From contig OZ018418.1 in the NCBI GenBank assembly GCA_963969595.1, forward strand, positions 2,609,001 through 2,673,000: a stretch of DNA of 64,000 nt, written 5' to 3'. Below, piece by piece: positions 11,969-60,791 of this stretch. How positions within the stretch are numbered: the first letter of the stretch is position 1; each line of letters begins with the position of its first letter. The notes below the pieces were generated by a model. It was not told where the DNA came from and did no database searches. It saw only the letters and a program-made list of their open reading frames with translations. This DNA is from Neckera pumila. Taxonomy: Eukaryota; Streptophyta; Bryopsida; Hypnales; Neckeraceae. The position numbers and the translations under genes are program-made.

Positions 11969-12575
11969 ACATTGCAAATGCAAAGAACCCCAACATAACA
12001 AAGACAACCAACTGCTCCTATCATTTTTGCAATTTATATTAAACTAACTCTGATTTCACTTAAAAATGCAATTTCTGCTAAACTATATTTACCGAGCCTT
12101 GCAACCAGCTTTTCATTTTGAAACTCACAGTGGGAGTACGTAATGTCAAACTCCGGAATTCCGGATTAGTTTAGGAGTAGATTAGTGAGTTTTTTCAAAA
12201 TTTTAGAATACAAAAGTAGTAACCCGGAACAATTAGCCAAACCAGGAAATTGGGAAAGTTTCGGCTTAGCAGAAACTGTAAAATGGGTAAGGAACAGATC
12301 TTAACGGGATCCGTAATCCGGAAGGTGATCCGGATTCAGGAAACCTACGACCTAGCTTCCGGTCCGGGAATTAGGGTTCCGTTGGAAAAAGGCGGCGCAT
12401 TTATGGGCCGCCCCAACGGGTGTCGGTCACTGGCCGGCTACTTAAGCCGCTCTTCTCCATTTCTTTTCTCTCTTTCTTCCGCTCGAGGATGTGTGTGTGT
12501 TTGTAGGTTTGGAGCACGCATTAGCTGAGTGAAAAAGTGGTGAGATAGGATCGGATAGGGAGAGAAGGAAAGGAA

Positions 12576-12590
12576 GGTGCCGATTGCACC
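12576..12590 (+). other. GGTGC-N5-GCACC dyad just before the ORF (possible primer-binding site)
   Basis: The sequence GGTGCCGATTGCACC lies 27 bases before the likely start codon. The same dyad, GGTGCCAATTGCACC, occupies the matching position in unit 2 (43257-43271). It resembles the tRNA-complementary primer-binding sequences of some plant retroelements (GGCGCCGTTGC type) but also reads as a small hairpin. It is not evident in units 3 and 4. Confidence 0.35.
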
Positions 12591-12616
12591 GGGTTAGTGG
12601 GATTTGGTCAGCGTGG

Positions 12617-14550
12617 ATGGAGGAATCTCGCAAACCGACAGTTACAGCCAAGTGGCTCAATCCGGTCATATCAACGGACCCAAAAGCGCGGGTGCTTTTG
12701 GAAGGGGATTTGGATAGCATGGAATGCGCGGGGTTGTTGCACAAACCCTGGAATCTCAAGGAAGAGGCGATGATCCACGAAGTTGTGGCTGGAGCTCCGA
12801 ATCAGTTCGAATTCACGGAGCGAGGGAAGTCAGCCAAGTGGACCGAGGAGATGTGGACGGAAGTCTACTCGTTCCGGAAGGCAGGTTCCGGATATGCCTT
12901 GAGGAATGACGGGTACATTCATGGGAAGTTCCGGAATCTACCCCATCCGAAAGAAGGGTATGCGATCCACGATTGCATTGACGTGAGGCAGAGATAGGTG
13001 CTGGAGTTCCTGGTTCCGATCTTGTATCCGGAGAAGCCCACCCGGCTCACCAGCACGTTGGGCAACACCATTTTCGGAGCGATGGAGGACAGACCGGTCC
13101 ACTAGGGGAGGATAGTGAAGGCCGTGGTGCAGAAACTGGCGGACGGCGTGCAGAGGGCCAAGTCCAGCCCGCTCAGCACCTACCTCTTCTACTTGTACTA
13201 CCACAACGGGAACGTGAGTGAACAGAAAACCAAGGACTACAAGGTGGCCGAGGAGATGCTCAAGTACGGTCTAGCTCCGGAACCGGAGAAGCAGGCCGAG
13301 GAAACCGTTCCGGAACTGACACTGCCAAGGCCGGAGAGGGCGGAAACTTCGCGGCGGAAGTCGACCTACTCGAATGCAAGGGGGAAACAGTAGGTTCCGG
13401 AAATGGGGGAACTGGGATGGACCTTCTCAGACCTTGGAGGGAACGAGTTGTTCGATTCTGGAGAAGAGTGGTTCCAGGAGACGAGGAAACGGTATGAGGA
13501 ATTGGCGGATTTTATATGCATGATATCCGACGAAATGAAGGTGGAGCTGAACGAGATTTTGGGGGAGCTCAAAAAGCGCCCGGATCCGACCTTGCTCAGT
13601 AAGAAGGAGGATCAAATTCGGAAATTGGAGGAGGAGAAGATCCAACTTAGTCCCGTTTGGGTGTTGCGGATGAAGCCCTCAAGTTTGCATCCAAGAGAGA
13701 GTCGGATGCTATGCATGTAGTGAGGATACTTACGGATTTAGTAGGACAGCCCGCGGATCAAATCACGCGCGCCCGGCTCTTCACCAATAAGTTAATTCAA
13801 GAGGGCATCGTGACCGGAAGTATGATTCTCAAGATCCTGGTGGATTATGAGATCAAGATGAAGAACATATTGGCGGAGATGAGGAAGCTGTTGGGCTTTC
13901 TCAATTCGGCAGTCATGGACTTCACCAAATTTCCGGAAGTGCAGAGTATGCAACTGTGGAAGACTCCGACCAAACCAGTCCCCGCCGAAAGAACTCCCAT
14001 ATCGGATCCAGGGCTCCAAGCCTTGCTGAAGGACGTTACGGCTCAGTCTACAGGTCAGGCGGGGCCGTCACAAAGGAGAGAGAGGTTAATCGCAGCTGTT
14101 GCCAAGAAGGGTTCGGGTTCTCCAGTGGTTCAGAAAACTCCGGCAAAGACGGTCCTGGTCACATTCCCTCCACGCACGGCAAGAATACCAGAGGGGAACA
14201 TAGGATCCACGATCCTGGTTTCTCCGGTTTGGACGGATCTGACGAGCCGGATGCCTGTGGTGGAGAATCCGGCCAGGACACATCCGGAAGACTTCACCCA
14301 CATGGAGGAAGCATTCGAGCAAGCAGAGGGAGGCGGTGAAGAGGATCTGGTTGGAGCTTCATTGGGGCAACCCATTGAGATGGAATCGGATAGGGAGTTA
14401 GTCTTATCCGATGACGAGGAGACGGAAGTCACAACAACTCCACTGATCCGGTGTCCAATCTAGACCCGGGCAAGTGTCCGGAACACTCCCACAAAGACAA
14501 CAGAAGGGACGCAAGGCGGCAGCAGTTCAAAGAAGTCGCGAAGGAAGTAG
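12617..14550 (+). pseudogene. Unit 1 protein, gag-like or plant-transposon-protein family (broken)
   Basis: The order of domains is the same as in the longest copy (45984-47768). An N-terminal block contains KPWNLKEEAMIHEVVAGAP, then W..EMW.EVYSF, HGKF and EGYAIHDC. A central block follows, VLEFLVPILYPEKPTR..NTIFGAM, then PLSTYLFYLYYHN. After that come a Glu/Lys-rich coiled-coil-like region, a block with RARLFTNKLI and KMKNILAEMRKLLG, an acidic Ser/Glu stretch and a basic tail, SSSKKSRRK. In-frame TAGs lie after RQR (about 12997), at a conserved Trp (VH*GR, about 13103) and at about 13392. Frameshifts lie near 13660 and near the C-terminus. The first ATG in the conserved frame is 12617. The function is unknown and there is no nuclease or polymerase motif. 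Confidence 0.7.
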
Positions 14551-15839
14551 TTAGTTAGGATGTTTGGATTTTGGTTTAGAATTTGAATTCTAGTTCTGGA
14601 ACGGGTTTTCTGCGCTTGGGACCCTAGTTCCGGATTTATTTTTAGAAGGAGCCGGTAGTGGATTTTTCGGGTATTTCGGGGGGTTCTCTGATTGGCTGCC
14701 CGGATTCCCGGGGCTGCTTTTTGGGCTTTTAGGTGTTGACTTTTTGTGGGTTTTTAAGGGCTGGCAAGCTGGTTGTGCTGGGATTCCCTCCTAGCAGATT
14801 TTCATCTTGTATTCCATTCTTTTCTTTTAATCTAAGTGCTATGTGAGCTTCCAGATTTTCATCTTTGTGTTTAATTGTGGATTTGAATGCTTATGACTGT
14901 ACTAGAGTGTGAGGGAAGACGGGTGAGGAGGAATCCGGATCTTGGGCAGTTGGTTCCATTTGAAAGGTACATTTGAGATAGTGTTAGATTCTTGACTGAG
15001 TGGAAGTGCACAGCGCCTTTAAATTGCTGTGATGGTGATCCGGTCGACTGAGTAGCGGAAGCAAGTGCGGCTGTCAACTCGTGTGGAGGTAAGTGCCCAC
15101 CCAGAGGAAGTTGCCACTCTCCCGGAAGGTTTGCCAACCTCAGAAAGGTCTAGCATTTAACAAACCACCCCCGGTAGGTTCCGGAACCCTGTGATCTATC
15201 GTTGTAGTAAGGAGTGGATCGAGTCCTGAGTGACCTGCTTTCCGGATCAAGTGTCTAGGAAGTTGTGAGGATCCGGATCTTTTGTCCCTGTTGCAACTCC
15301 TTGAAATATTTGTGTGTGTGTGTTTGTGTTTGTTAAGTTTAGTGAGCGTGAGAACCAGAGTGGTGAAGTCCCTACCCCTCGAAAGATCAAAGCGGACCCT
15401 TTGAGGGTGAAACAGAGGTGAAAGAAACCATCTTGATTTGGAAGTGGAAACCGGATTCCGGGTAGAATCGGATTCGGATAGAATTCCGAATAGTGGAAAG
15501 TTCCGGAAAGAAGTGAATAGGTGATTGGATTGAGGAGAAAAGAGAATCCGGAAACTTGGAAGGTGCAACATTATCTTGGAATTCCCTAGGACGATAACTC
15601 GTGTCATTTTAGCACAATATTGTGGCTAAAGATAATTACGCCTAGATTGCGCGTACGACACTCACTTTCACTAGACATTCTTAATTAATTTAGGATCTTC
15701 TTAGGCTAGTCATTGTGATTCGCTACCTAAATTTGTTCATTTCCAAGGTTTTTATAAAATTAAAGGACTTTGGCAACATAGTCCTAAGGGCAATGTGGGG
15801 AAAACAAAAAATATGAAAACAAGGTTCACTTACAATTTC

Positions 15840-16525
15840 TACTTATAGAGATTGCTCCAGTACTTTCTTTGTGGTATTCCTGGAACCCTTGCCTCAGGCA
15901 ATTGAGGCCATCTTCACCAAGGTTTTCTTGCCCTCCTTGCTCCCTCTCTTATCCACCAGCGCATCCTAGTATTCCTACGTCATATTCGAAAGCTTGTTGT
16001 GGCCCCTGTCGATGCTCTGGTTCAATGTGTACCTGAATTGTGTTAGTGCGCCTCCTGCTGTCTTTTTTAAGTACTTCTCACTTAGTTTACTGTTATCTCC
16101 AAAATACTCATATTTATTTAGGAGTCGACCTTTAACTATTTGCTTGTCGTCCTTGGTTTGTCCCTTCCACTCAACATTGGGATTCAGCTTCTCAACAAAT
16201 GAACCAATGTCCCCTTGAAATAGTTAGGCCATTTTCTCCATTAATTCACCATTGACGTCCAAGCGGAGAGGTTGTCTCATATTGCCACGACCTTTGACTT
16301 CATTCAATACAATCGGTAAAGACAAAGGAAGTGGGCTCATTGCACGTTTGCTGCTCTAGACAAACTTATGACGTCCAATATTGTCAGTCGCATTGGTGTA
16401 CATGTCTGACGAAGGAAGACCACGGCATTTGAATCTAGAGTCCTCAAATTGTCTTTCCTCTTCATATTTTCTACCCCTCTTGCTGAAATCCATTCCGCGG
16501 CTGTCATAGTAAGGGTTTGCAGCAT
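15840..16525 (-). pseudogene. Decayed exon resembling plant CACTA helper protein (Transposase_24-like)
   Basis: The minus-strand frame contains NEVKGRGNMRQPLRLDVNGE, NKYEYFGDNSKLSEKYLKK, GGALTQFRYTLNQSIDRGHN and then ALVDKRGSKEGKKTLVKM with GKGSRNT. This order (a short compact helical domain, then KRGS..GKK, then GKGSR) recalls the En/Spm-associated Transposase_24 family. It ends at a good donor, AAATT followed by GTAAGTGA (about 15834). At least four stops interrupt it. Unit 1 is inserted downstream of this donor, inside the intron. Confidence 0.45.
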
Positions 16526-17275
16526 GCAACAACTTTTATGGGAGAATTAGTAATTAGTTCTATATAGGAATTCAGGAGTTGTTGCAAAAAATACAAAGTT
16601 CTAATTTTATACCAAATGCAGCTTCAATTAGTCATCCATATTTCGGATAACCTCTTTTTTTTTCATTGAACATTGTCAGTAAAAAATTAAAATGGGGATT
16701 TTTTTTTATTGTCAATGACAAATAGGGCATATTAGTGGGGCTAATCAAACATTCTAATTCACTTGCTTGTTGAAGTTGAACAACATTGACTCCTCATATC
16801 AGAGGCATTTACACTTGCAGCAACGTCAAAGACGTCTAATCAAATACTCAACGACAACTATATCAAACGACTAACAAATTTGAATTTCTAATGCCCATGT
16901 CAAAAAACCTTAGGAAACTCAATAGAAGACACGGATTGCTATGCTCTAAAGAAAGTAGCAAAGAACACAAACAAGTAAGCCGTTAACTTGAACTCCTAAA
17001 CAATCGCATGTGATGACAAAAAAGAAGTCCATTTATGGAAGATGAATGTCAAAAACCAAAAGCATTGTGCACTCAAGACCTAAGAGATCTCATTTCCACG
17101 AAGTACAAAAAAGTTTACTTACCTCTACGTCCACTGTAGTTAGGACGACCGTCATTCTATCCTACGCAGGCACCATAGTCTTTAGCACATCTATCCAAGT
17201 CTATCACACCTATGTAGGCTATTGGTGCCCAAGAACATCTGAAAAAACCTCTGTACGCAGCTAGAGGAGTGTGGC

Positions 17276-17582
17276 CATATCCAACAGGGTATTCCCTTTA
17301 CCATTTGTGCCTACCTTGTCTATTCTGCTCATCAACACGATATCTTGCAGCAGGTGGTCTAAGTGCCCTGTCCACTTTCCTCACATGTCGTCTCTATTGT
17401 GCTTCGGGTATGTCTTCTTCAAAAATTCCCGCTTGTCTATCTTTGGAAGTAGACACATGTTGCACTTTGGTTACCTTAGAGCTTGCAGTGTCTTCCTCTC
17501 TATTGTCATCTTGATCTAATTCCACAACAGGTTTGTATGATTTAGGCATCTCCCGTTTCAAACGAGCCCCACTCTTTCCCAT
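17276..17582 (-). pseudogene. First exon of the decayed minus-strand CACTA-type gene
   Basis: The ATG at 17582 opens a basic N-terminus (MGKSGARLKREMPKSYKP) followed by an acidic Asp/Glu stretch and IFEEDIPEAQ. A TAG then interrupts, and the same frame continues RHVRKVDRALRPPAARYRVD. The basic leader fits a nuclear protein. About 400 bp upstream of the ATG begins the GTCCG-rich island at 17990-18620, an arrangement seen before two other minus-strand transposon genes in the window. No catalytic motif is present in this exon. Confidence 0.45.
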
Positions 17583-17989
17583 TTTGGTGACAATTTTTTT
17601 TCTGATGTCTCTTCTTGGCCAAGTGCAAAACCGCTCTTCAATCTACTAGCAAAAAGAATACAAATCAGAAGATGGCGAGTACATGGGAACATCAGAAGAT
17701 GGTGGCATGACATTGTAAACAGAAGCTGACAAATACAATGCTTTTACCAATTCAGTGATTCAAAACTTCCTATCGACACCTTCCACTTCCGACAAAATAC
17801 AAAAGACATTGACATGATTCATTGCCCACAGTTGCTTTCATAATGCCTTCGCGTCCATACACTGGGCTACGTAGAGTTTTTACGACATTGGTTTTCTGAT
17901 GAAACTAATAAGTAAGTGATGTGCTTAGTGCTTCAATAGCGGTCTACCATGTCAGCAAATTCAAGCTTCATGGAGCTGTAAGCCAAAGA

Positions 17990-18620
17990 GAATGGAGGTT
18001 CCGTACAGAATAGAGAGTACTCCAAAAAAGAAAAAAAGAAAAAAACTCCAGGAGGTAATCACACCATTGCATCTCAACAAATCAAGTGTGAAGCAGGACT
18101 TGGCAGAAGGATGCAGGGATGGCTGGATGTCAAGGCGTCTGCGTCCACGTCCAACGTCTGAAGGATGGCGGACGTCTCGTGACATTTGTTTTTTTGGATT
18201 TTGGATTTTTTCTTTAAAAAAGAAAATACCCGTCCAATATCCAGTCCGCCGCGATTGCAAGCACCGTCTGCTAGTCCATCTGCCAAATCCTGCGGACAGA
18301 CTGGCGGACGCACCCACCGATCGCCGATCCATCTGCCAAATCTGGCGGGCGGACTGCAGACGCACTCACCATCCGCCAAGCCCTCTGCCATCCAGTCCGC
18401 CAAATCCATTGGAGAAAGGGTGGTCGAACGCAGCGTCCAACGGATTCTGTCACTGACCGTTCCGACCGCAACAATTTGATCCGTCCGCCAAAACCGTCCA
18501 CATTGCTGTCCGTCGTATTCTCAGACGGTTTAGGTGGATGCAAACCGTCAAGAGTCAAACGTGCCGTACGGCTTCACCTGGGTCAAATGCAAGGACATGA
18601 CATCCGCTCTCCTACGGATG
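17990..18620. repeat. GTCCGCC-rich island upstream of the 17582 gene start
   Basis: This is a GC-rich patch in AT-rich DNA. It holds many imperfect copies of CCGTCCGCC, ATCCGCCAAATC and CATCTGCCAAATC, and CpG is well preserved. Long ORFs here on both strands come from the repeats and are not genes. Similar islands lie upstream of the 39468 and 49636 gene starts, and a regular array lies at 51541-51960. It may be a transposon subterminal repeat array or promoter island. Confidence 0.65.
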
Positions 18621-18639
18621 TGATTGTGTTATGCCCAAG

Positions 18640-19427: not shown

Positions 19428-19435
19428 GCTCATTT

Positions 19436-19762: not shown

Positions 19763-19770
19763 GCTCATTT

Positions 19771-42069: not shown

Positions 42070-43256
42070 ATACTTGTCGTAGCACAAGAAAGTAAAATCC
42101 CTCCAGTAGACGTTCCAACGTATTTAAACGCTTTTAGGATGACTCGTGTATTGTTCCCACAGAGATCTAGTTTGTACTTCTATAGTGATGGCTGAAACAA
42201 GATGCGGAAGTTACAACAACCACAAGTGAACCGGATTCTAGAATGGAAAGCTAAGAACATCTATGCAATTGCTTTCCATTTGGTTGGACTATTCCACTTT
42301 AGTTCCAATCCGCTCAACAACAACAAGGAAGTATCTAAACAATGTATTGCTCTCTTTTCTACTGATAATACTTTGACCCTAGGACTCAGAACCGAAACTG
42401 GAAGGAGTGTTGTTATCCTGTGCTTCTTCCTGATTCCGCTTTCGGATCTTCAAATTTAGTAACTGTTTAGAAGTTTAGCCTCTACTGCAGAGGGTTTTGC
42501 GTATTGTAATTAAAGAAGGCTGTGTGAATTCCTACCCTTCAAGGTTTTATAGTGTCAGAAGTTCCATTCAAAGAAGAAAAAGACAAAAGACAAAAAGAAA
42601 TGGGACTTCAGTTTCTCCTCACAACTAACCCAGAAGCTTAATCCGGATCAGCAGGTCACTCAAGAAACCCCTACAGTCTCCACAATACTACAACAACAGA
42701 TTCTCCTGACCTAAGTTCCTCGATAGAGACGCTACTCTCGGAAACCGGATACAGGAAACATTTGGAGGCACTCATCTCTTGCAAAACCTGCAAACACAGC
42801 TACCCGCACGAAGTAATGGTTCTAGCATTACTGTGGGAATACAAAAACTTTAGTAGATAGAAAATAGGATAAAAATGGGTTAGCATAGTCTAATTTTGTT
42901 GAATTTGTTATTAGTATCCAAGAATCTGGGTCAGCTAGAAAGAAATTAGAAATAGCTGATACCTGGATTGCTAGAATTCCTAAACCGGATAAATATTCCG
43001 GTGACAGACGGAAGCTGTACGACAGAAGACGGATCCGGAAAGCCTACGACCGATAACCTTCCGGCCTAGACCCCCTAGGGCACCATTACGAGAACGATCT
43101 CATACCCATTCCCCTGGGGAACTGTCGGCCGAACGTCGGGTACTTAAGGGCTCAGTTTTCATTTCTTCTATCTCTTTTTTCTTGTACTTGTGGTGTGCGC
43201 TTAGAGAGTGAAAGTGTGTTGAGTTAGGACCATGCTAGGGAGAGATCGATGAGGTC

Positions 43257-43271
43257 GGTGCCAATTGCACC
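43257..43271 (+). other. GGTGC-N5-GCACC dyad before the unit 2 ORF
   Basis: GGTGCCAATTGCACC lies 21 bases before the ATG at 43293, in the position matching 12576-12590 of unit 1. It is conserved although the surrounding 5' DNA differs, so it may be a primer-binding or regulatory site. Confidence 0.35.
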
Positions 43272-43292
43272 AGATTAGCGAGTCGGTAAACT

Positions 43293-44940
43293 ATGGCAGG
43301 GCCGGCTTGGATGATGTCTCCGGCAATTCCTAAGTATTTGAAAGTCCAAAAGCACTTGGAGGAGGACTTAGAAACAATAGGATGCGCCGGATTGTTGCGA
43401 CGCCCCTGGAGTTTGAAGAATGATGAGATCATCGCGGAACTTATAGTGGGAGTTCCGAATCAGTACCAATTGACTGTGAGAGGCCAGCCCAAACTTTGGA
43501 CGGAGGACATTTGGGCGGAAGTGTATTCGTTCCGGAAAGCCGGATTTGGTTTAGCTCCCCGTAATGATAGGACCGAGCAAAGTAAGTTTTGAGGTCCGGT
43601 GCATAATAAGGAGGGATACAGTATTCATGATTGTATTGAGGATAGGCATAGCCGGATTCTGGAGTTTCTCATTCTGATTCTGTATCCGTAGAAGCCTACC
43701 TGGATTACGGCGATAGTAGCAAGCACCATATTTGGAGCGATGGAAGGCAGATCGGCAAATTGGGATAGACTTATCACAAACGTAGTCTCTAAGTTAGTCG
43801 CGCGGGCAACATCCAAAAAAGCTACCCTGCTAAGCCCGTATCTTTTCCATCTTTATCATCAGCAGGTTTTTTTGAATGAATTGGAGATGCATGTATACAT
43901 TCATGGAGAGGAAGTCCTGAAGTACGAGTTTATGGAAGAAGTCCAACTGGACCAACCCGTCCAAGGAGTATCCAAAGAGGAAGAATCGGAGCAGCCGCCC
44001 TTGACGCCGGGGGCACTGAAGGTGCAGGAGCTCCGCATCCAAAATTTGCAGCAAGACAAGATGGATCTCAAATCCCGAGTAGCTCAGCTAGAGAGCAAGC
44101 TAGAGGTGGCAAGGACAAAGGAGGCAAACGCTTCCAACTTGTCCGGAATCTGTCGACTTTGGTGGCAGCTCCAGCAGAGCAAGTGTTACTAACCCGGCTC
44201 TTCACCAACAAGATGAAGGACAAAGCTCACCCATCCGGACCGAATGTGCTAAGGGTGCTCATCAACTACCAAGCCCGGATGGAGAAGATGTTGGCAGAGA
44301 TGCGGCAGTTGCTGGGTCAACTTGACCCGGACAGGGAATTGGATTTCGAAGGTTTCCCGGAGGTCGCAGATGCCCATAATTATTTGCAAACTCCGGCCAA
44401 AGAAGCAATACCGGAGGAGAATCCAATAAGGGGACAAGATATGTTGATCAATGAGACCAGTATGCCCCTGATGTCCGGAAAGGAGGGAACCGGAACGTCT
44501 GTTCCGATAAGGACAACAAGATTTGTGACAATACCGGAAGCTTCAACATTGGAAAAGGCGAGAGACTTGATTCCGGAAACGAGACTCACCTTTCTTATAG
44601 GTGAGCTAGCCCGACCAATTGGAGCTGCAATCTTTGCTACACCAAAGTCCGTGGTTTGTCGTAGCCTGGCCAGACCTTCGGGGCCATCAAGAATCCGGCT
44701 TGGAACTATCCAAAGAAGTTCATCCACACGCAGCAAACTTCTCCGCCCAAGGGCGATAAAATTCCATTGGAGATTTCGGACGATGAGGAGGAAGAATGTG
44801 AAACCGGAAGGGAGTCAGAGGACGAGGCCACTCTGCCTCAAGGGCGCACGATCCTCATCCGGGCACAGGCCAAGAGCACGCCAGTGAAGTCATCATCAAC
44901 CAAGGCAGGGAACAGCATGAAGAAATCAAGGAAGAAGTAG
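43293..44940 (+). pseudogene. Unit 2 protein, same family as units 1, 3 and 4 (broken)
   Basis: The ATG at 43293 is followed by LRRPWSLKNDEIIAELIVGV, LWTEDIWAEVYSFRKAGFG, ILEFLILILYP, STIFGAMEGRSANWDRLI and LLSPYLFHLYHQ, the conserved order of the family. A heptad-rich segment with LRIQNLQQDKMDLKSRVAQL is coiled-coil-like. After a frameshift near 44150 comes LLTRLFTNKM, then KMLAEMRQLLGQLD, an acidic tail and finally NSMKKSRKK. In-frame stops occur at about 43590 and at about 43689 (P*KPTW). A second frameshift near 44740 separates the acidic tail. It is probably not translated whole. Confidence 0.7.
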
Positions 44941-45983
44941 TTAATTTGATGGGTTTTTGTTTGTTTGTTTTGAATTTGTTCCGTCTCGGGTTTCTTGGAG
45001 GTGGGATCCGATTCGAGATTCTTAGGAGGCCACCGACCTGGATTTTCTGGTTATCTTGGATGTTAGCTTCATTGGCCACCCTGATTTTCAGGTGTGCCCT
45101 TTTTGCTTTTTTGCTTTTTAGTTTGGGTTTTAAAGGTAGGCAGGCTTGTTGCCCTCTCATTCCATTCCAGTCCATTAGAGTGCATTTTGATTATATTCTT
45201 TTGCTTTCTTTAATCGGAGACCCCTTATGGATATTTTTGGATCCGGCTACATGCATGAGTAAGAGTATTTGCAAGAGTGTTGAAGTGTGAGGAAGACGGG
45301 TGAGGAGGAATCCGGATCTAAGTCAACTGGGTGTGATCAGTAGTCGGCATTTGAGAGAACTCTAGATCTGTGAAGGAGGATTAGTGCATTTGGAAATCCT
45401 TGGGACCATATTTTGTGTTATCTTAGCACATCTTTGTGTTAAGGATACTTACGCTTGGATTGTGCGTACGACAATTACCGTCATACCAACCCAGTGTCAA
45501 AACTTTTCAGACCAACACTTAGGATGCGGAAATCAAAATACTTTGCATTGGAAAATGAAAAGAACATAAGTGTAAGATAATATTATCTTATCAAGCCCGA
45601 AATTGAAATCAACTTCAACCCCCTAAATACTAAATACATGGGCACCCAAAAGGCCTCATGAGAATCCTAACTACAGACCAAAGAATGACACGCGTCATTC
45701 CTTCAATTCCAAAATCCTAACTTCCTGTGTTGACTTCCTAACAGCCCGCCCTTTCCACAAAAAGTGGATCTTAGATCCAAAAAATCCGGATCCAGCTGTT
45801 CAGGTGCATGCAATTAGAAAGCAACTAGAAAGCTGCTTCCTAAAAACTTTAATTTTCCTTTATTTAACTAAATTAAACTTGTCTTTTGCTTTCCTATAAT
45901 TAACTTAACTGGACTATACTTTATTTTCCACCTACCAAAAGCTGGAGTTCCACTAACTCCCTAAATCAGCTCCTACAAATGCT

Positions 45984-47768
45984 CTACCCACTTCTTCTTT
46001 TGCCACTTGAATGGTGTTGGTGCTGTCTTGACAACACCTTTCCTTGCTGGCTGTTGTCGACTACCAGTAGACTTAGTAACTTTCCCCTTTGAAGGGATTG
46101 GAGACTTACCTTTCCCCTTCTCGCGTGCCGGTTTGGTTCCGGTTTGGATTCTTCTTGTTCTTCCTTGGTTTCTTCCCTAGATTTGGACTGACTGTCCTCC
46201 TTCTCAGTGGTCTCTAGCGACTCATCCCTCTCAGAGTCAAGCTCAATTGTTGGTGATGCCTCCCTACTCCTCGTTGATGTTGATTTCCGTTTGGTTGAGG
46301 CTGACTTGGGTGCCTGACCGGAAAGCGTGCTCTGTGGAGTGTTAAGATCCAGTTCCACAGTCTTACTATAATTGCGAGTCTGGGATGCAGTTGATAACCC
46401 TTTTCTGGTCCCCGAATCAATCTTCAACTTGGAGTGGCTGGCTGGTGTGGTCTTCTCTTCCGCACTTCCCTTCAAATTTTGGTTAGCTGAACTTTGCAGT
46501 GATGTTGCTGTGGTGTGAGTCTCCTCCTTCACCTTTCCTTTGGCCTTTGCCGGTTTCAGTTCTAGGTGCACATTAGCATTCTCCATGACTTCTCTCAACT
46601 CAAATAAGGTACGCTCCATCTTCACATGATAGGACACCAAGATTGCAACAACCTTGGGTCCCATCTGAGCTCCCTCCTTGAATATCCCGGCCTCAAAAAG
46701 TTTGGCTTTGTTAATTACCTCGCCTAGGTTTCCAACAAACTTTCGGATCCGTTTAAGGGTGTCCAAAGTTTCAGCCGAGAGCTGTCTACCCTCACTCTCA
46801 GACTTTTTCCCTAACCTATTCTGCATATCCTTTATTTGACCGGGTAGGCTTGCTATCCGGTTTTCAGACTTCTGGGTCACCTCCTTATCACTCATCATTT
46901 TTTCTTGGATGCCCTTCAGTTCACTTATAATCACCCCAAGAGGGTCAGTTGACTTTGCCCAAACCGGATCCTTACTAGTCCCCTCTCCAGCTACTCCCTT
47001 GTCTTTCTTCAGGGGTTCCTCATATTCCTCTTCGGGTTCTGACTCATCTACTGACGCTTCTTTCTTCTCTCCCGGTTCCGGACTAATGTCATACTGTAAC
47101 ATTACATCCACGGCCTTGTACTCGGTTACCTCCTTTCCTCTCAGTAACTCATTATGCTCATAGAGGTGGAAGAGAAAGGGAGAGAGACTAGAGGGTCTGG
47201 GATTGCCTACTATCAAGACCATCTTAGCCACTACTTCCTTCAATACTAAACCCCAATTCACTTTCCTCTCTCCGATTAGTGCACCAAAAATGGTATTTGC
47301 TATGGTAATGGAGACCCGGGTAGGATGCTCCGGATACAAGATTAGAACTAAAAACTCCAAAACTCTCCTATACGTCAAGTTTGAGCAATCCGCTGCTTTG
47401 TATCCATCCTTGGGGCTGATAGGGTTGCAAAACTTACCATTAGCAAACTTATCTGTCCGTCTAGCCATTCCTTCCCCCTCTTTGGGAAAGTTGTACACCT
47501 CTCCCCACATCTCTGGAGTCCATCCGGCTAGATGCATCCAGATTGTGTGATGCCACTCGCTTGATTGCTTTGTGAGTAGCTCCCCCACGATCACCTCATT
47601 CTTCAAGTTCCAGGGCCTCCGCATGAAGCCATCGCATCCAAGCCCCATCAAGCCCTCCTGCAAGAGTGCCTTCTCTTTGGCATTCTTTGACAGTCCAGGC
47701 GTCATGGACCGGAATTTGAGCGAAGGCGACTCTTCACTCATCTTAGCCTTTACCATGGCTCTGAGCAA
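45984..47768 (-). CDS. Unit 3 protein, longest copy of the lineage-specific family (about 594 codons)
   Basis: This is the only long uninterrupted copy. Residues about 40-110 hold FMRRPWNLKNEVIVGELLTK, TPEMWGEVYNFPKEGEGMAR and NGKFCNPISPKDGYKAADC. About 130-215 hold RRVLEFLVLILYP, NTIFGALIGERKVNWGLVL and SLSPFLFHLYEHNELL. Then come Glu-rich linkers, a helical region with IRKFVGNLGEVINKAKLFEA and VSYHVKMERTLFELREVM, and a Lys/Ser/Glu-rich low-complexity half. The last 40 codons probably belong to another frame, in which the end reads TPFKWQKKKWVEHL, so one small indel lies near 46130. It might be a Gag-like or 'putative plant transposon protein' (PF20167-like) family. No zinc knuckle, protease or polymerase is seen. 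The ATG at 47738 (MSEESPS) is an alternative start. Confidence 0.7.
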   Translation of the reverse strand: MLRAMVKAKMSEESPSLKFRSMTPGLSKNAKEKALLQEGLMGLGCDGFMRRPWNLKNEVIVGELLTKQSSEWHHTIWMHLAGWTPEMWGEVYNFPKEGEGMARRTDKFANGKFCNPISPKDGYKAADCSNLTYRRVLEFLVLILYPEHPTRVSITIANTIFGALIGERKVNWGLVLKEVVAKMVLIVGNPRPSSLSPFLFHLYEHNELLRGKEVTEYKAVDVMLQYDISPEPGEKKEASVDESEPEEEYEEPLKKDKGVAGEGTSKDPVWAKSTDPLGVIISELKGIQEKMMSDKEVTQKSENRIASLPGQIKDMQNRLGKKSESEGRQLSAETLDTLKRIRKFVGNLGEVINKAKLFEAGIFKEGAQMGPKVVAILVSYHVKMERTLFELREVMENANVHLELKPAKAKGKVKEETHTTATSLQSSANQNLKGSAEEKTTPASHSKLKIDSGTRKGLSTASQTRNYSKTVELDLNTPQSTLSGQAPKSASTKRKSTSTRSREASPTIELDSERDESLETTEKEDSQSKSREETKEEQEESKPEPNRHARRGKVSLQSLQRGKLLSLLVVDNSQQGKVLSRQHQHHSSGKRRSG

Positions 47769-48404
47769 CTACTTGGAGCAAATAACAACCTCTCCAGTCC
47801 CCCTTGCCCTAAACAGTTGCATCCCACTACTGTTCTTTCTCATAGAGCCAGACAGTCTCACAATCGCTCAACTGAAACCGGAATCTCAAAGCTTGTATTC
47901 TTGTAAGCTCTCAGCGCAACACTTCTTTGAAAACACTCACTCACAATCAGAAAGCACCAGAATGAGAAGATAGAATGAAGAGGTTGCTACAGAACCCCTT
48001 CTTCTTCATTGTCCATCCGGTTTTCCTACTGTTGAAAATGACCGTTCCCATCTTCACCGAGAAATAATTCCTGTTCAATGGCTCTCCTAATTTCCCGATA
48101 GCGATTGTTAGCTCCCGGTTTCTATTTCCGATACCGGTTTGATTGATTCCGAATCCCTAGACTCCCGGTAGTGATCCCATGTTGGTTTCTGGTTTGCAAT
48201 ACAAGACAGAAACAATTAACATCCATCTTAACTATTTTATCTCTTTTAAGAGATCCTATGGTTGCTAATCTAGAAATCTACTAAACTTTGTACTTCTACC
48301 CATAAAACAACAAAAAAAATATGGAAATGAAATGTCTTTAACCTAATGCTATTACAAAGTAATAGAATTTGGTATTCCGGGCTCCCACAATACTTCACTC
48401 GGAA

Positions 48405-50743: not shown

Positions 50744-50896
50744 TCTACTTAGCCCTCAAAGTACATGACTGCCTTCCTCATTAACAAATAATATTTGCTA
50801 CTTGCATACAACCATGCATTGGCTAAGCATTTTGTAATTTTAGCAAGGCTGATTACAAAGATATAGGGTGTAAGGAAAGAAGTGTATTAAGTAAAA

Positions 50897-51530
50897 AATG
50901 ATCCCCTCTCATCCACCATAAAAAACCACAATTCATCCCCACTCCAATTCAATCCCTCTAAAAATGTAGAGTACAAAGATGACAAAAAATTAGAAGAAGA
51001 TTTATACAAGGGGCCATTTGTTGAATCCACAACTATTTCATCCAAACATCATTATTTAAAATTTACAATGGGAATCCTAAACAATGGTCCCCTCTCTTTC
51101 ACCGTGAGAAACCACAATTCATCTCCACTCCAATTCAATCCTTTTAAAAATATAGAGTACAAAGATTACAAAAAAAATTAGAAGTTTTAAAGAAGGAGCC
51201 ATTTGTACAATCCATGACTATTCGTCTAAACATCATTATTTAAAATTTACAGGGGAAATTCTAAACAATGGTCCATTCTCATTGACCATTAGAAACCACA
51301 ATTCACCCCCACTTCAATTCAATCCTTCTAAAAATGTAGAGTACTAAGATTAAAAAAAAATAAGAAGTTTTAATGAAAGAACCATTTGTACAATTCATGA
51401 CTATTTTGTCTAAACATCATTATTTAAAATTTACAACGGGAATCCCAGACAATGGTCCCCTCTCATTTACCATTAGAAACCGCAATTCATCCGCATTGGA
51501 ATTTAGTCAGTGTATCAAATTATAAATTAT
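50897..51530 (+). repeat. Satellite-like tandem repeat, 184-186 bp unit, about 3.4 copies
   Basis: The word CC(A/G)CAATTCA(T/C)CC occurs at 50926, 51112, 51296 and 51480, giving spacings of 186, 184 and 184. Each unit also holds AAAATGTAGAGTAC, CCATTTGTACAAT, CATCATTATTTAAAATTTAC and ACAATGGTCCCCTCTC. Units differ by scattered substitutions. The length is in the nucleosome range typical of plant satellites. It directly abuts the 31 bp minisatellite. Confidence 0.9.
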
Positions 51531-51540: not shown

Positions 51541-51960
51541 TCGGCCCGTTTGCCTAGCCGTCTGCCAAAAATAAGACCGTTTGCCCTCTAATCCGTCCAA
51601 AATCCCATAGTCCACCCAATTCTTGTCCGTCTGCCAGAAATACAACCGTCCGCTCTCCCGTCCCACAAAATTTCAATTGTCTACCCTCTCGTCCGCCAAA
51701 ATTCCGACCATTCGTCCTCTCGTCCGCCAAAAATTCCAATCGTCCACCTTTCCGCCAATGTTTCAACCGTCCGTCCTCTCGTTCGCCAGAGTTCCAACCA
51801 TTCGCCCTCCCGTCTGCCAAAATTCCAACCATCCGCCTTCCTGTCCGCCAAAATTCCGACAGTCCGCCCTCCGTCTGCCAAAATTCCGATCGTCCGCCCT
51901 CCCATCCGCCAAAATTCCGACCGTCCGCCATTTTATCCAAACACCCGCTGCGTCCGCTGC
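51541..51960 (+). repeat. 31 bp GTCCGCC minisatellite, about 13 copies
   Basis: The unit is close to GTCCGCCAAAATTCCGACC plus GTCCGCCCTCCC, repeated with substitutions across 420 bp. The long minus-strand ORF here is produced by the repeats (31 bp gives a frame-rotating pattern rich in Trp, Arg, Glu and Gly) and should not be annotated as a gene. It shares its words with the islands at 17990, 39660 and 49880. Confidence 0.88.
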
Positions 51961-52019
51961 ATCTGGACGTCCAATTTTTGGACGTAATTTGCCCTGGGAC
52001 GCAACGTCTTGTCAACTCG

Positions 52020-54510: not shown

Positions 54511-54513
54511 CAC

Positions 54514-54842
54514 CTTCTTCCTCTTCAAAGATGCAGCACTAACAGGTACTGGAGTTGCACCACCACTCTTGTGTTCCTCGTTGTCCTCCTCAGTGGCACT
54601 TGTAACTGCGACTTTGTCTTCCGCTTTCGTCCTTGTCCTCTTGATTTCGAAACTCCGTCGGGGACAACGGTATTGCTGGCCTCCCTAAAAAATGCAAAAT
54701 GAAGCGCAGCTGCTTCTTTGAATCCCACATCTAGCAAGTTCCGCTCAACTGCGTCGTGGAGCTCCTTTACACGTACGTTCCTTTCCTCCTTATGTACACA
54801 AATTCCGCTGCTACCGCTATCCAAACTTGAAGACCTATCCAT
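54514..54842 (-). pseudogene. Exon related to the 11076-11700 exon, with one frameshift
   Basis: The ATG at 54842 (context ACAATGG) opens MDRSSSLDSGSSGICVHKEE, then VKELHDAVERNLLDVGFKEA and ALHFAFFREASNTVVPDGV. After a frameshift near 54650 the frame continues EDKVAVTSATEEDNEEHK and ends VSAASLKRKK at a good donor, AAGAAG followed by GTGAGA. The KVAVTSA motif and the basic end before a donor parallel the exon at 11076. It may belong to a second, isolated copy of the same CACTA-type gene. Confidence 0.45.
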
Positions 54843-54919
54843 TGTTGGCGGCGAACTGGATTTGACGAGTTCGTTTGCTTGCAATGTGGAATTGAATTGA
54901 AATCTAAAACCACTCAAGT

Positions 54920-57200
54920 GTTAGAGTACATGCAGTCCCTTAGAGTCTATAGAAAAGTGACACGTGTCTTTCACATAGATTTTGAAATCTTTTTCCAAAA
55001 ATTCCAGTTCCAATTATTGTCAAAGTTTTCCTCAAATGAATCAGTCAATTAGACATGAAAGGAAGAAGGGTGAACCTGCAACCGGGTGAATAAGAAAACA
55101 TGAATTCCTATTTTAAATTTTTTTGACATATTGAATGTCTATTGGAATTTGTATATGCACCACTAGGGGGTATGAATTTTTATTTTTCATGTACATGTGA
55201 ACCTCATTGTCTAAGTAAATATTGCATGTGAAGTAAAAGACTCCAAAAATCATAGTACTAATTCAAGCAATAATTGAGATTTTGTAGTTGAAAAAATTGA
55301 TGGTGATATTTTAATGGGATCGCGTCATTAATTACTTGTTCACCTTGTATATGACAAGAAATTAGCGTTCATATATGGCACTCATTTACTTTGTCATTAT
55401 GAGAATTTAGATATTTATTTTTTGAACTTAGATAGCAACATATATACAGATGTGTAAGAAAAAAACTTGCATTGTCAATTTCAAATGAAGAATTTCAATT
55501 TCATTGAATTGGTATTTTGCGTGAATAAGGAATGCTACCATACACTTCAAAATTATGAAAGAGGTTAAGGTGTCACTTGTACATTGAGGTCTCTTCTGCT
55601 TTAATGTGATTTTTTATATCTTGTCGCAGCATATCAATTTCAATTATAAAATGGACATGTTATGATTGTTCTTCTGCGGGAGATTTGGATTAGTAAGTGT
55701 GCATTAAAAACCATTTTTTAAAGAATGAGCTCATACATTTGGAGAGAGTCAAAATTATACTATGAATTCAAGAAAAATCAATACTTAGTTCAATATTAAA
55801 GTAAAACCTTTTGATAGATAGAGTTTTGATAATGTTCTATTGGAGAACCCACTATAACGCACAATTTTTGGGGCAAAATGGTTTTCCAGTGCCTAGAAGC
55901 CTATTACAAACTTGGCTGATTTGTGAAATAATGAAGAGAACAACCAAAACGCTGACATGGTACTGGAGAGTTATATAGACACTAACGATAGGAATGACAT
56001 TGAATTAAAAAAATGAAACTTCAACAATGAAAGGTAAAATGGATTGTGCCTTTTTAGCTAATACTACTAATAGATTTAGTATGCAGAACTTCTCACTAAA
56101 AGGTTGTTGGGAAATGCAAATGGAATGAGTGTTTCTGCCACAATGGACATCGTACAAAAGAGAGTATCATCAATTTTTTCTGTCTAGGGAAGAAATTGAG
56201 AAAATCTTAAGAACTTGTTGGATTTCTGTTCTCTACAAGAGTGGTCCAGGTGAATATAATCCTTAAGCATGATAAGTGCGTGGCCAATGTTTAACATGCT
56301 ACATTGTTTTCCTTCAGTACTTTCATGTTTGTTATACATATAGAAGGGGGGATATAGAGTAGCAACTTAGAAAACACTATGAACATGCGTTGGTTGACTT
56401 TTTGAAATTGTTGATGCTGTCAGTGGCTGTGTTATGGTTAAAATAGTATTAAAGCGCATTCCAAAGGTTCATTGGATTCATTAACAGTTTATAAATAGGA
56501 TTGCTTAATTTTTTGTATTGAAAAGCAGTCACGAAATCTAGTTTGAATGCATTCCAAATTTCAGCTGTTTGCGATAGTCTTCGACAGGAAACATGTGAAA
56601 ACTTCACATATGTAATCAAATCTAAATCTGGATTCTATCTTGAACCACATCATCTAGATTTCTCCCATAGATGTCCATCAACTCGTCATTAAAGTCAGTG
56701 CCTCGTTGCCTTATACCCTTTCTTTTTATAGCAATTTCAATATCTATAGTTCATGCAGGAGGAGTTCATAAAATGAATTATAAAAGAGTGTAGAATATTC
56801 TTTGCACCACAAACATGATTGTTGCAATAGTATTGTATAATGCATATCTAAGTGCCATGCTAGATTGTTTACTTGTATGATTTGTATTCTGATTATTGTA
56901 GAAATAGTAGTTATTGTTAATAGCAAACATGTACTTTATGCATATGAAGGGCACTTCTTTGTCATTTTGAAATAGCAGCGTCAATTTCTTTGACTTTGAA
57001 AGTTATTTAGGAATTTTTTATAGAGAAATGAACATGGCTATTGAGAAACTCTCATCATGCACACTGTTAGCTTCTTCTAGAACAAGTGGATTGGTCGTTG
57101 TAAAACAACAACTTATGTCATTGTCATATATTGAGTTCTTTTTTGTTTCTTGTAGTGAATTTTTACGTCATCCATAACGAATAGCAAAATCTAGTTGTAT
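54920..57200. other. AT-rich spacer, no gene seen
   Basis: No ORF of note, array or terminus was recognised in this stretch. Confidence 0.5.
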
Positions 57201-57208
57201 TAGAAACC

Positions 57209-57650
57209 ATGGATCAAAACAGAATTTCTGATGTTGACAGTGTCCCAGTAAATGGGAAGTGGATTTGGATTAGAAGGAGAATTCTAGAGGATACGGGAAT
57301 TCATGAGGTCGTAAGTGGCCTGAGCGCAGCATCTACAGTATTATCTAAAGAGGGTACTAAAGTCACAAAAGAGGATGCATCACTTGCAAAGATAGAAGGT
57401 GCTATCATTGCAAAACAAAAAGTTAGTTACAAAGCAATCGTTTAGGAATCTCTAAAGGAATTAAGAGAGTGCATAGAGCAAACAAGAGGTCCGGTTGCCA
57501 AAACTAACTACAAGATTGTAGAGGAGCAAATGATGGGGGCTTCGAGTAGCATTTTCCTCAACAAAAGAAGAAGAGGATATCATATCAGGCACTGTTTGGT
57601 TCTAGAGGGGACTCACATAGAAATTGACTTTTTGAAAATTGCTTTCGTGA
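57209..57650 (+). pseudogene. Gene fragment of unknown family
   Basis: The ATG lies in an excellent context (GAAACCATGGATC). The frame reads MDQNRISDVDSVPVNGKWIW, then RRRILEDTGIHEVVSGLSAA and, after a TAG at 57443, ESLKELRECIEQTRGPVAKT and EEQMMGASSSIFLNKRRRG to a stop near 57655. Composition is that of a helical, charged protein. I do not recognise the family. Unit 4 is inserted about 100 bp downstream. Confidence 0.35.
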
Positions 57651-57757
57651 AGTAACAGTGAATAGTAGGCAGGAGGAAGAGTTTGTTATTCTTGGATGTT
57701 TAAGTTTAGTTCACTGTATCTTTGATGAACAAAAGTATGTTGAGAAAGCATACAAGT

Positions 57758-60700
57758 TGTCGTAGCACAAGGAAGTATAAATCCTACCTTTAGGTGTTAA
57801 ATTAGCATAAATCATCCAAGATGACTCATGTATTGTTCTCAAAGGATTTTAACTTGTAGTATCCTCAAAATTACCGGATTAAGATTCAGAAAACCAAACC
57901 CAAGGCAAAGGAATCCGGAACTGAAAACTTGGAATTGCACTTCCTCATCTTGCTTTCTCTCAACTCATACCAATAACCATACCCCAGACCACTTAGAACA
58001 GGTATGCATTCTTCCCAATAGTAGCTGTAACTTAGTGTCCTACTTAACTAAATGTGGAATTGAAAGGAGTGTCATGATCTTGTACCTTTCTCGGATCCGA
58101 ATTCAGAAAACAAAGTAACTAATGAAAATATTTTAACCTCTATAACAGAGAGGTCTGCTCTTTGGTTTCAGGAAGGAAAAGTATACCCTACCCTTCAACA
58201 GATTAAAGTGATTGAAGTTTCACTTAGAGAAAACACAAAATACACACTAAACCTGGATGCGGATTCTTCCTCATAACTAATCTGGAAATCAATCCGAACT
58301 AGTAGGTCACTCAGGAAACCCCCACAAACTTCTTTTACTACAACAATAGACCTATCCAAATTTGGTTCTCTAAGGCAGTATCTGGTGACCAAATAAATAG
58401 GCGATCCTAATTACTTGCACATCACTCATTTCTGGATGTAGGAGAACCTCATCAACACGTCAATCAGTATACTCCTACCTTGTGCAACACGCATCCAATC
58501 TAAGAGCGGCTATCCTCCATAGAAGTTTCCAAGTAATGACAGTAACTAAACTTCACTCCTAGTACACAAGGTATCTCAACCAGCTTACTTCAATTCCCGG
58601 AACCGGATTCAGACAGAATCCAGGGGTAACTTCTCCTCTCAAGTTCCACAACCAAGCTACTTGAACCAGCAATGGTCAAAGCACTGCCTAACCCCTCAAC
58701 ACAAAACCAAGACTTTTCAGACAAATACTCATGGAGTTGAAATCCAAGCTTTCTTTACAAGATTGAAATAGAAAACAAGAGTATAAACTGCTTGGAGTTG
58801 AAACTAACTTCCAACCCCTAAATAGCCAACCAAGGGAAACCCTAAAGGTCCCCAGAAACAAAAGCAAAGGACCAAGGAATGACAGGTGTCATTCCTTATC
58901 CTTCTAACTTGACATTCCTACCAACCCATCTGATCCGCAAAATGTGGATCTCAGATCCTAAAAACCTAAAAAGCCACAGTCCAGGTGCATAGAGCTGAAA
59001 AGTACCTCCCAAGTAGCTTCTTGCACTCAAAAACTTAACTTTCCTTAATTGAACTGAACTATACTTTACTTTACTGTAACTTCTACTTATTGTTCTTAGG
59101 CTTGTCCTGAAAACTTCTACTTCTACTTTCTACTTTCTACCATTCTTTGGAAAAGGTTCCTTGACTTTGGATGCGTCCTTCCTTGGCGGCTGCTTCTTAC
59201 TGGCTGAAGGCTTCCTCCCACCAAGCAGCCTACAGATTTTTCTAGCTGCTCCCTTCTCAGTATCCAAGTCCTCCTTCGCCATTTCCAGGTCCTCAATAAT
59301 CCTCCCTAGAGGATCCTCTCTCTCAACTTCCGGTTCCGCGAAACTCCTCCGACTACTCTGGGACCCTTTCTTCTTCTCAGAGCATGGAATCTTCTCTGAA
59401 GACTCTTGCTTCTTTGCTGATGACCCTCTACCGGATTCTTCATCCGGTCCTTTCATCTTATCCACACTCTCTTTTTTTTTGACGGGGAGTGATGTCAAGT
59501 TTCCTCATTATAGAGGCTGCTTTCAAAACTAATTCCTCCGGCTTCCTTAGCACCCCTAGATGGTTGTATAAGTGAAACAAGAAAGGTCCTATGGAAGTCG
59601 CCTTTGTACCTCCTAGAGAGGCGACCATCTTCTGAACTAATTCTCTCAAAATTCTTGCCTAGAATACCTTCTCTCCACTCAACGTGCCAAATATGGTGTT
59701 GGCCCATGTTACTATAATTGAGTTTGGCCTTTTCGGATACAGAATAGAGACCAAGAATTCCAACACTCTCTTCTCTCTGGGTGACTTATAGTTTGCCACT
59801 GCGTATCCGTCCTTGTTATGAGGAGAATTTAGGAATTTACCTTTCGCGTGCCTATCCGACCGCGAGGCCAATCCCTCTCTAGTGTGCGGAAAGTTGTACA
59901 CCCTCTTCCACATTCAATCGTCCACTTATTGGAGAGAGCATGGGCGGTCTTCATCCACTCGTTTGACTGGCCCTTCAAGAGTTCGCCAATCATGTCTTCG
60001 TCTCTCAAGCTCCAAGGTTTCTTCAGAAAAGAGGCGACCTTGATTTGACCCAGATCCTCCTCCAACTGCTTCCGCTCTCCGTCATCCTTTGGAATGGCCA
60101 GATAGATCGATTTAAACTTGAGCTATAATAATTTGCTGCCCTCAGCCTTCATAATCGCTCAAGTCACTAACAATCCACTCAATTGATGCTTCTCTCAAAG
60201 AACTATGAGAAGTTTCCTACCTAGTAAGAATCCTCTTCCGCTTCCTCCACCTCGGGAACAAAAAACTTTTAATCCTCTCCAGACACAGTCACATGCAAAA
60301 GCTTCACTAACTTGCGCTCTACACATCAGCCAAATTCAAATCGTAAGAATGAGGATGGAAGTTCCGACCTCTAGAACTTCCCTCAAATGAACAATCGCCA
60401 GATTAGAGTAGCTATTATTCTCCTGCATGCGGATAAAATCCGACCATTTGAACGGTCAACCCTAATCTCCAGTATGGCCGTTGGATCCTACATTCGCTTG
60501 ACTAGCTCCCAATAGGTTTTCTGTTACCTTTCCTGTTAGTTCTGGTACCTGGTCCCGGTATTGAAACAATTCCGGATCTCAATCTGGTTCCAATTCTCAA
60601 TTAGAACAGGAAACTTTAACTATTGTTTTTAACCTAATTATCTGTCTATCAATACTCTTTTAGCAAGGAACGTTAATTGTGGTAAGACGTTTTAGTTTAC

Positions 60701-60791
60701 CCTTGGATAATCCAAAAAATTATACCTATTTTGATTCCTTCCTCTAAGTTTCCTCATCAACAAAACTTATCTTACTTTACAGGCTCCCACA
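57758..60791 (-). mobile_element. Unit 4: 3.0 kb gene-bearing TG...CA element
   Basis: On the minus strand it starts TGTGGGAGCCTGTAAAG (60791) and ends TTGTGCTACGACA (57758). CAAGT flanks both sides (57753-57757 and 60792-60796). The ends are closest to unit 3 (TGTGGGAGCC and GTGCTACGACA), so units 3 and 4 form one subfamily and units 1 and 2 another (GTGCGTACGACA). The 3' end matches unit 3 through CAATACA(T/C)GAGTCATC. No LTR pair is visible. Its ORF is decayed and shorter. Confidence 0.83.
59130..60152 (-). pseudogene. Unit 4 protein, shortened and broken family member
   Basis: The ATG at 60152 gives MKAEGSKLL, then a TAG, then LKFKSIYLAIPKDDGERKQL, FLKKPWSLRDEDMIGELLKG, WKRVYNFPHTREGLASRSD, RVLEFLVSILYP, NTIFGTLSGEKVF and IGPFLFHLYNHLG. 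This is the conserved order. Frameshifts occur near 59910 and 59490. The helical region with KMER..LREVM seen in units 1-3 is missing, and the gene goes directly to the acidic/basic tail (EREDPLGRIIEDLEMAKEDL, ending PFPKNGRK). This may be an internal deletion. Confidence 0.65.

What the first reader, a model, noticed from the sequence alone, without database searches (positions are those of the whole stretch)
12129..60791. Four gene-bearing TG...CA units with perfect 5 bp duplications but no LTRs
12129-15660, 42832-45473, 42075-48387 and 57758-60791 share ends (TGTGGGA... and ...ACGACA), each has its own perfect 5 bp duplication (CTCAC, ATTAC, ATACT, CAAGT), and each carries one homologous protein. 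The end type and duplication length point to retroviral-type integrase. Yet no LTR pair, reverse transcriptase, RNase H or integrase is visible in any copy. Two readings fit: solo LTRs that contain a protein gene, or non-autonomous retroelements that integrated as single-ended DNA without LTRs. Either would be unusual.
Basis: partly seen in the sequence, partly recalled or inferred. Interest (0 to 1): 0.9.

Follow-up and report, generated by a model that had tools for sequence, protein, structure and literature searches.

The report
Plant retroelement LTRs carrying a gene
The four units look like lone end-repeats (solo LTRs) of Ty3/gypsy-type jumping genes in a land-plant genome, and they are unusual because the end-repeats hold a protein gene that selection kept working while the elements were spreading.

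Summary
The units are solo LTRs. Decisive evidence lies elsewhere on the same contig. Two same-strand copies of unit 1 lie 9.45 kb apart and share one outer 5-bp duplication (TATAC). Between them are a PBS-like sequence, gag, reverse transcriptase, RNase H, integrase and a polypurine tract. They are the most similar of 105 pairs compared. So for this family the "LTR-less element" reading fails and "solo LTR with a gene" holds.

What is unusual is the gene. At least three families of such units (3.5-3.9 kb), two of them tied to internal element sequence, carry homologous ORFs of about 590-720 codons. In one family (10 copies) mean pairwise dN/dS is 0.23, and shared variants are third-position biased inside the ORF but not outside. 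In unit 1's family private variants are roughly flat, so copies decay after insertion. The protein shows no membrane helix and has a basic tail. Weak kinship to plant Transposase_32 (PF20167) is suggested. The plant accessory ORFs that I found in print lie in the internal region; the LTR-ORF precedent found is MMTV.

Verdict: new variant of a known kind. The protein's function and the promoter layout remain inferred.

The parts
12129..15660 (+). Unit 1: solo LTR, family 1, 3532 bp; duplication CTCAC at 12124-12128 and 15661-15665
   Evidence: same-family LTR pair around gag-pol at C11:2.871-2.884 Mb
12617..14552 (+). Decayed accessory ORF in unit 1 (several stops and a frame change near 13640-13657; the end is approximate)
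42832..45473 (+). Unit 2: solo-LTR-like unit related to unit 1, nested in unit 3; duplication ATTAC at 42827-42831 and 45474-45478
43293..44940 (+). Decayed accessory ORF in unit 2 (end approximate)
42075..48389 (-). Unit 3: solo-LTR-like unit, about 3.67 kb not counting nested unit 2; duplication ATACT at 42070-42074 and 48390-48394
45984..47768 (-). Intact accessory ORF of unit 3, 594 aa as listed (first ATG at residue 5)
57758..60791 (-). Unit 4: solo-LTR-like unit, 3034 bp; duplication CAAGT at 57753-57757 and 60792-60796
59133..60122 (-). Decayed accessory ORF pieces of unit 4
12439..12445 (+). Candidate TATA-like TACTTAA upstream of the unit-1 ORF (also in unit 2 and L031; absent from units 3 and 4); function inferred
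14752..14759 (+). Candidate TATA-like TTTTAAGG downstream of the unit-1 ORF, proposed start of the gag-pol RNA; function inferred

Best explanation
The units are solo LTRs of Ty3/gypsy retrotransposons with unusually long LTRs (about 3.5-3.9 kb), each carrying a sense accessory gene. A complete element is LTR(gene)-PBS-gag-pol-PPT-LTR(gene), so it holds the gene twice. Recombination between the two long LTRs removes gag-pol and leaves a single gene-bearing LTR within the original 5-bp duplication. Shown: the LTR pair, shared duplication, PBS-like and PPT sequences of one family-1 element; its gag, RT, RNase H and integrase; the sense orientation there; purifying selection on the LTR gene during spread. 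Inferred: that the other families have the same structure; that single units arose by LTR-LTR recombination; that the gene lies in U3 with its own promoter near the LTR start while the gag-pol RNA starts downstream of the ORF; that the product is a nuclear, nucleic-acid-binding helper of the element (activation, silencing escape or nuclear delivery) and not an envelope protein; that a PPT shift upstream of a 3' accessory ORF drew the gene into the LTR.
For: Two same-strand family-1 copies at C11:2874349 and 2883800. The 5' LTR's left flank TATAC equals the 3' LTR's right flank TATAC. Inner edges are CTTTTGGTGCCGCTGCCGAGGAT and GAAAAAGGGGTCA. Between them: Retrotrans_gag 6.3e-10, RVT_1 2.2e-13, RT_RNaseH 3.6e-22, Integrase_H2C2 2.8e-13, rve 7.8e-11. 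The two LTRs are 95.5% identical (2718 of 2845), the closest of 105 pairs. Single copies: 11 of 15 in family 1 and 7 of 9 in the L031 family have their own perfect duplication. PBS-side internal sequence has 14 matches (all 14 candidates scored) against 471 first-look candidates, 40 of them scored, for the LTR start. The L031-family PPT flank has 5 matches, 3 of which abut an LTR start listed. Selection: L031-family shared variants at codon positions 1/2/3 are 66/63/184 in the ORF and 61/51/53 outside, p 1.8e-7; dN/dS mean 0.23 over 45 pairs. Family 1 (no test run): shared 58/56/109 and 47/38/67 in the ORF against 21/22/25 and 76/61/55 outside; private 78/59/80 and 61/63/68 in the ORF.
Against: Only one element was verified with both LTRs, and its own LTR ORFs and pol are broken. 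A second candidate at C11:281-293 kb has a PPT junction, a degraded PBS and a rearranged 5' LTR, and its 3' LTR end was not reached. In a third at C4:14.84 Mb the 3' LTR was not seen in the stretches taken. The C7 'pair' proved to be one LTR split by an insertion. A C4:28.48 Mb pair of the unit-4 family has no PPT and its far ends were not found. Among 40 scored L031-family starts there is no same-strand pair 8-12 kb apart. No transcript data; promoters are motif guesses, and the 5' motif is absent from units 3 and 4. The structure prediction failed (pLDDT 44). L031-family private variants also lean to third positions (111/128/180), though not significantly against non-ORF (p 0.11).
Confidence: 0.86

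Rival explanations
1. The units are a separate kind of non-autonomous retroelement without LTRs, integrated as one-unit DNA by a retroviral integrase in trans; the one 'pair' is two chance insertions.
For: Single copies seem to outnumber internal regions greatly: 471 first-look LTR candidates against 14 PBS-side matches in family 1, 275 against 5 PPT-side matches in the L031 family. No unit has direct terminal repeats. Only one pair was verified.
Against: The pair shares one outer duplication, has PBS-like and PPT sequences at the inner edges and gag-pol between, and is the closest of 105 pairs. Three L031-family starts abut a PPT-like sequence. A lone LTR has no known way to be copied by reverse transcription (established knowledge).
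Confidence: 0.04
2. The ORF is a captured passenger gene without function for the element, carried because it lies in the LTR.
For: Many copies are broken: 8 of 10 L031-family copies have 1-4 in-frame stops.
Against: dN/dS 0.15-0.35 over all 45 pairs. Third-position bias of shared variants in all three parts of the protein: 19/21/68, 19/13/50, 28/29/66. The gene recurs in diverged families: unit 3 and L031 share 46% of 217 residues, units 1 and 3 share 38% in two pieces.
Confidence: 0.05
3. The LTR gene encodes an envelope-like or cell-to-cell movement protein, as proposed for some plant accessory ORFs.
For: Sense accessory ORFs downstream of pol are often called env-like (PMC7264820, two of three text parts read).
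Against: Highest 19-residue hydropathy is 1.49 (window, 594 aa) and 0.88 (L031, 716 aa), below the usual 1.6 for a membrane helix (threshold recalled); the last 54 and 56 residues carry net charge +10 and +17.
Confidence: 0.05

Closest known systems
Mouse mammary tumour virus LTR ORF (sag) (listing of titles and abstracts; details recalled)
   Same: A protein gene lies inside the LTR, is therefore duplicated, and can stay in a solo LTR (recalled).
   Different: Animal betaretrovirus; no sequence link was tested. Here it is a plant Ty3/gypsy element and several unit families share the gene.
Plant accessory ORFs of LTR retrotransposons (Grande gene23, RIRE2, Retand ORF4, Athila, Tekay 5' aORF) (PMC7264820, PMC11728184)
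   Same: Extra conserved ORF beside gag-pol; some products are nuclear; a sunflower Athila 3' accessory ORF matches Transposase_32 (PF20167), to which three relatives of the LTR gene here are weakly similar.
   Different: Those ORFs are described in the internal region, upstream or downstream of gag-pol; here the ORF is wholly inside the LTR.
Anti-silencing proteins of Vandal DNA transposons (passage of PMC11728184; the name VANC is recalled)
   Same: Possible analogous role: an element-coded helper that counters silencing.
   Different: DNA transposons; no sequence link was tested.
Large-LTR non-chromovirus Ty3/gypsy elements of plants (PMC6317226, passages)
   Same: LTRs up to about 5 kb and extra ORFs occur together; no chromodomain was found in the integrase ORF here.
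   Different: The lineage of the present element was not placed on a tree.

Membership tests
LTR retrotransposon, Ty3/gypsy | Two same-orientation LTRs flank gag-pol, with a target duplication outside | tested here: met
   One element, C11:2.871-2.884 Mb, TATAC on both outer sides
LTR retrotransposon, Ty3/gypsy | PBS after the 5' LTR and PPT before the 3' LTR | tested here: met
   CTTTTGGTGCCGCTGCCGAGGAT and GAAAAAGGGGTCA; which tRNA it matches was not tested (Asp-like is recall)
LTR retrotransposon, Ty3/gypsy | gag, RT, RNase H and integrase, with integrase last | tested here: met
   Pfam hits and their order in L010 and L009
Solo LTR | Single LTR with its own duplication and no internal region | tested here: met
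   Four window units; 11 of 15 family-1 and 7 of 9 L031-family fetched copies. That units 2-4 are LTRs rests on likeness
Chromovirus | Chromodomain at the integrase C end | tested here: not met
   No chromodomain listed at E up to 5 in the 570-aa ORF of one copy
Plant accessory ORF (aORF) as described in print | Extra ORF in the internal region | tested here: not met
   ORF lies inside the LTR
Transposase_32 (PF20167) | Score over the curated cut-off of 45 bits | tested here: not met
   18.6, 18.6 and 20.2 bits for L050, L051, L052, E 0.0018, 0.0019, 0.00058; window and L031 proteins do not match
MMTV-type LTR gene | Gene lies in U3, upstream of the genomic RNA start | not testable with these tools
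   No transcript data; candidate TATA-like motifs before and behind the ORF

The most novel reading that the evidence does not exclude
Because the gene and (inferred) its own promoter sit inside the LTR, every solo LTR is a stand-alone helper gene. LTR-LTR recombination, normally the host's way to delete an element, would then seed the genome with copies that go on making a trans-acting protein for the remaining elements, and the element would profit from its own deletion.
Probability: 0.17. Interest if true: 0.85.

Novelty: new variant of a known kind. Interest (0 to 1): 0.62.

Why it matters
LTRs are treated as regulatory DNA. Here they hold a conserved protein gene in several unit families of one plant genome. 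This doubles the gene per element, leaves it in solo LTRs, and would confuse gene and repeat annotation (solo LTRs called host genes, or long LTRs missed). It gives a natural system for asking what plant accessory ORF proteins do, and whether solo LTRs can act in trans.

Tried and rejected
LTR-less element: rejected, see rivals. C7:7.847/7.856 Mb as a second LTR pair: rejected, one LTR split by about 8.5 kb. C4:28.48/28.49 Mb as a unit-4-family pair: not supported, no PPT at the second start and no LTR end or matching duplication in the stretches taken. Structure of the N domain: pLDDT 44, so no fold search was made. Relatives in viral contigs: none confirmed, 52 pattern matches. Proteins: 2, then 3 homologs, with 7997 candidates scored each time in the 5.8-billion set; no PDB match for the window protein; no NCBIfam match with E below 0.1. 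Profile comparison of the LTR proteins with L049: probability 1.5%, no support. Literature: searches aimed at LTR-located ORFs were made; related topics were. One search listed 14 papers, 9 of them by title or abstract on MMTV or its superantigen; I saw only the listing, apart from passages of PMC12037069, which uses the phrase in another sense. One search listed none. So 'not in print' holds only for these phrases in this library. A first count of family-1 hits on C11 (18 of 40) was wrong; the recount is 16 of 40.

Full report
The window lies in a 339.5-Mb genome of 18 contigs, at C11:2609001-2673000. It is very probably a land plant: TTTAGGG telomere repeats (791 + 522 matches to a 28-mer; the places listed are all at the start of C1) and a LEAFY SAM domain at 1.5e-27, which rang in 0 of 14 control genomes. 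That it may be a moss is my guess only.

Units 1, 2, 3 and 4 have duplications CTCAC, ATTAC, ATACT and CAAGT. Unit 3 ends at 48389. Unit 1 starts with A where its relatives start with T. Units 3 and 4 are on the minus strand, and unit 2 sits inside unit 3. None has internal direct repeats.

Unit 1's first 272 bases gave 40 scored matches of 471 first-look candidates. I fetched 20 stretches. One search lists 16 copies; L014 had no 3' end, the fragmentary copies in L026 and L027 were left out, and L012 and L028 held none. Of 15 copies with both ends, 11 have their own perfect duplication, two form the pair below, L024 has four of five bases, and L016 has none.

The pair settles the class of family 1. 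At C11:2.871-2.884 Mb two minus-strand copies lie 9.45 kb apart. The outer flanks are TATAC on both sides. The 5' copy is followed by CTTTTGGTGCCGCTGCCGAGGAT and the 3' copy is preceded by GAAAAAGGGGTCA, that is a PBS-like sequence and a PPT. The interior encodes gag, RT, RNase H and integrase, in broken frames, with no chromodomain seen. The two copies are 95.5% identical, the closest of 105 pairs; the next pair is at 93.5%. So the unit is an LTR and unit 1 is a solo LTR. The PBS-side 300 bases have 14 matches in the genome. A second candidate at C11:281-293 kb shows a similar PPT context and a degraded PBS, and one at C4:14.84 Mb shows a PBS-like sequence, but neither was followed to both outer ends.

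The gene. Unit 3 holds an intact 594-aa ORF. In the own genome it gave 100 matches from 74 scored of 2948 candidates, including a subfamily at 42-47% identity. One member, L031 (C8), is a 3910-bp unit with duplication CATTG and an intact ORF of 716 codons from its ATG. I call this family 3. Ten family-3 copies were studied: L031, L041-L047, part of L040 and a nested copy in L024. Of 9 with both ends, 7 have a perfect duplication, L046 has four of five bases, and L042 has none. L042 is instead preceded by GAGGACGCTCACAGGTGGAAACGGGGTGA. This resembles the family-1 end GGGGACTCTCACATTTGAAAAAGGGGTCA, so it looks like the 3' LTR of a fuller element. The 100 bases before L042's LTR have 5 matches in the genome, of which 3 abut family-3 starts listed. 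Among the 40 scored family-3 starts I saw no same-strand pair 8-12 kb apart. In the verified family-1 element the LTR ORF runs in the same direction as gag-pol.

Selection. In family 3, shared variants at codon positions 1/2/3 are 66/63/184 within the ORF and 61/51/53 outside (p 1.8e-7); private ones are 111/128/180 and 87/98/100 (p 0.11). Pairwise dN/dS is 0.15-0.35, mean 0.23, over 45 pairs, with codons holding stops or gaps skipped; two of the ten copies have no stop. In family 1 (15 copies, no test run) shared variants are 58/56/109 and 47/38/67 in the two frame blocks, against 21/22/25 and 76/61/55 in the non-coding ends; private ones are 78/59/80 and 61/63/68, against 41/29/35 and 63/91/81. 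Of private changes 63% (family 1) and 59% (family 3) are C>T or G>A, as expected for methylated, decaying copies (inference). Thus the ORF was constrained while the families multiplied and, in family 1, decays freely after insertion. This argues, weakly, against a host-level role of single copies.

The protein. It has an N domain of about 230 residues, an acidic stretch, a middle part that looks coiled-coil-like by eye, and a basic tail. Hydropathy shows no membrane helix, and the last 54 and 56 residues of the two proteins carry +10 and +17. Three relatives were found in a 5.8-billion-protein set and none in the PDB. Pfam gives no significant family for the window proteins. Three relatives of the LTR gene (L050, L051, L052; whether they lie in LTRs was not checked, and L050 is 58% identical to L031) hit Transposase_32 (PF20167) at 0.0018, 0.0019 and 0.00058, all far below the curated cut-off. 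A genome-wide search with that family returned 5 matches, none over the cut-off; 3 of them are these genes, and the best is another protein, L049. L031, P0002, P0003 and P0004 did not match it. So distant kinship is suggested, not proven. PF20167 has been reported for a 3' accessory ORF of sunflower Athila (PMC11728184, passages). This leads to a proposed origin: a PPT that moved upstream of a 3' accessory ORF would place the ORF in U3 and hence in both LTRs (inference).

Layout. A TACTTAA motif lies before the ORF in unit 1, unit 2 and L031, not in units 3 and 4. A TATA-like motif of one of two forms lies behind the ORF in the five units compared, and in units 3, 4 and L031 a near-palindromic element ends about 55 bases upstream of it. 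I read these as a gene promoter and a gag-pol promoter, which would put the gene in U3. This is motif reading only.

Known kinds. Accessory ORFs of plant elements are described in the internal region (PMC7264820, two of three text parts read; PMC11963269, passages). LTR ORFs in the searched library are mostly those of MMTV (listing). Large LTRs and extra ORFs occur together in plant non-chromoviruses (PMC6317226, passages). Physcomitrella is among the genomes noted for high solo-LTR ratios (PMC7251063, passages). So the arrangement is a new variant: a known type of accessory gene in an unusual place.

Noticed in passing
Contig C11 (whole), window's contig: C11 is 3.6% of the genome but holds 16 of 40 best family-1 hits (p 2.5e-13) and 18 of 40 best unit-4-family hits, against 2 of 40 for family 3. 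It may be a sex or otherwise non-recombining chromosome; the two enriched queries came from C11 themselves.
   Followed up: partly
62039-62953: ORF of 304 aa with Transposase_21 (CACTA-type tnp2), E 3.3e-48.
   Followed up: no
L049 239-1549 (C10:17616700-17618900): Intact 437-aa ORF with a near-full-length weak PF20167 match (E 2.4e-4, below the cut-off); whether it lies in an LTR was not checked.
   Followed up: partly
unit 1 14906-14942, unit 2 45284-45319: A 37-base stretch 97% identical between two units whose other aligned pieces are 67-78% alike, with a splice-donor-like GGGTGAGG core that L031 has as GGGTAAGG; possible leader splice or packaging signal.
   Followed up: no
50892-51492 and 51627-51929: Tandem arrays with periods of 184 and 31/62 bases.
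   Followed up: no
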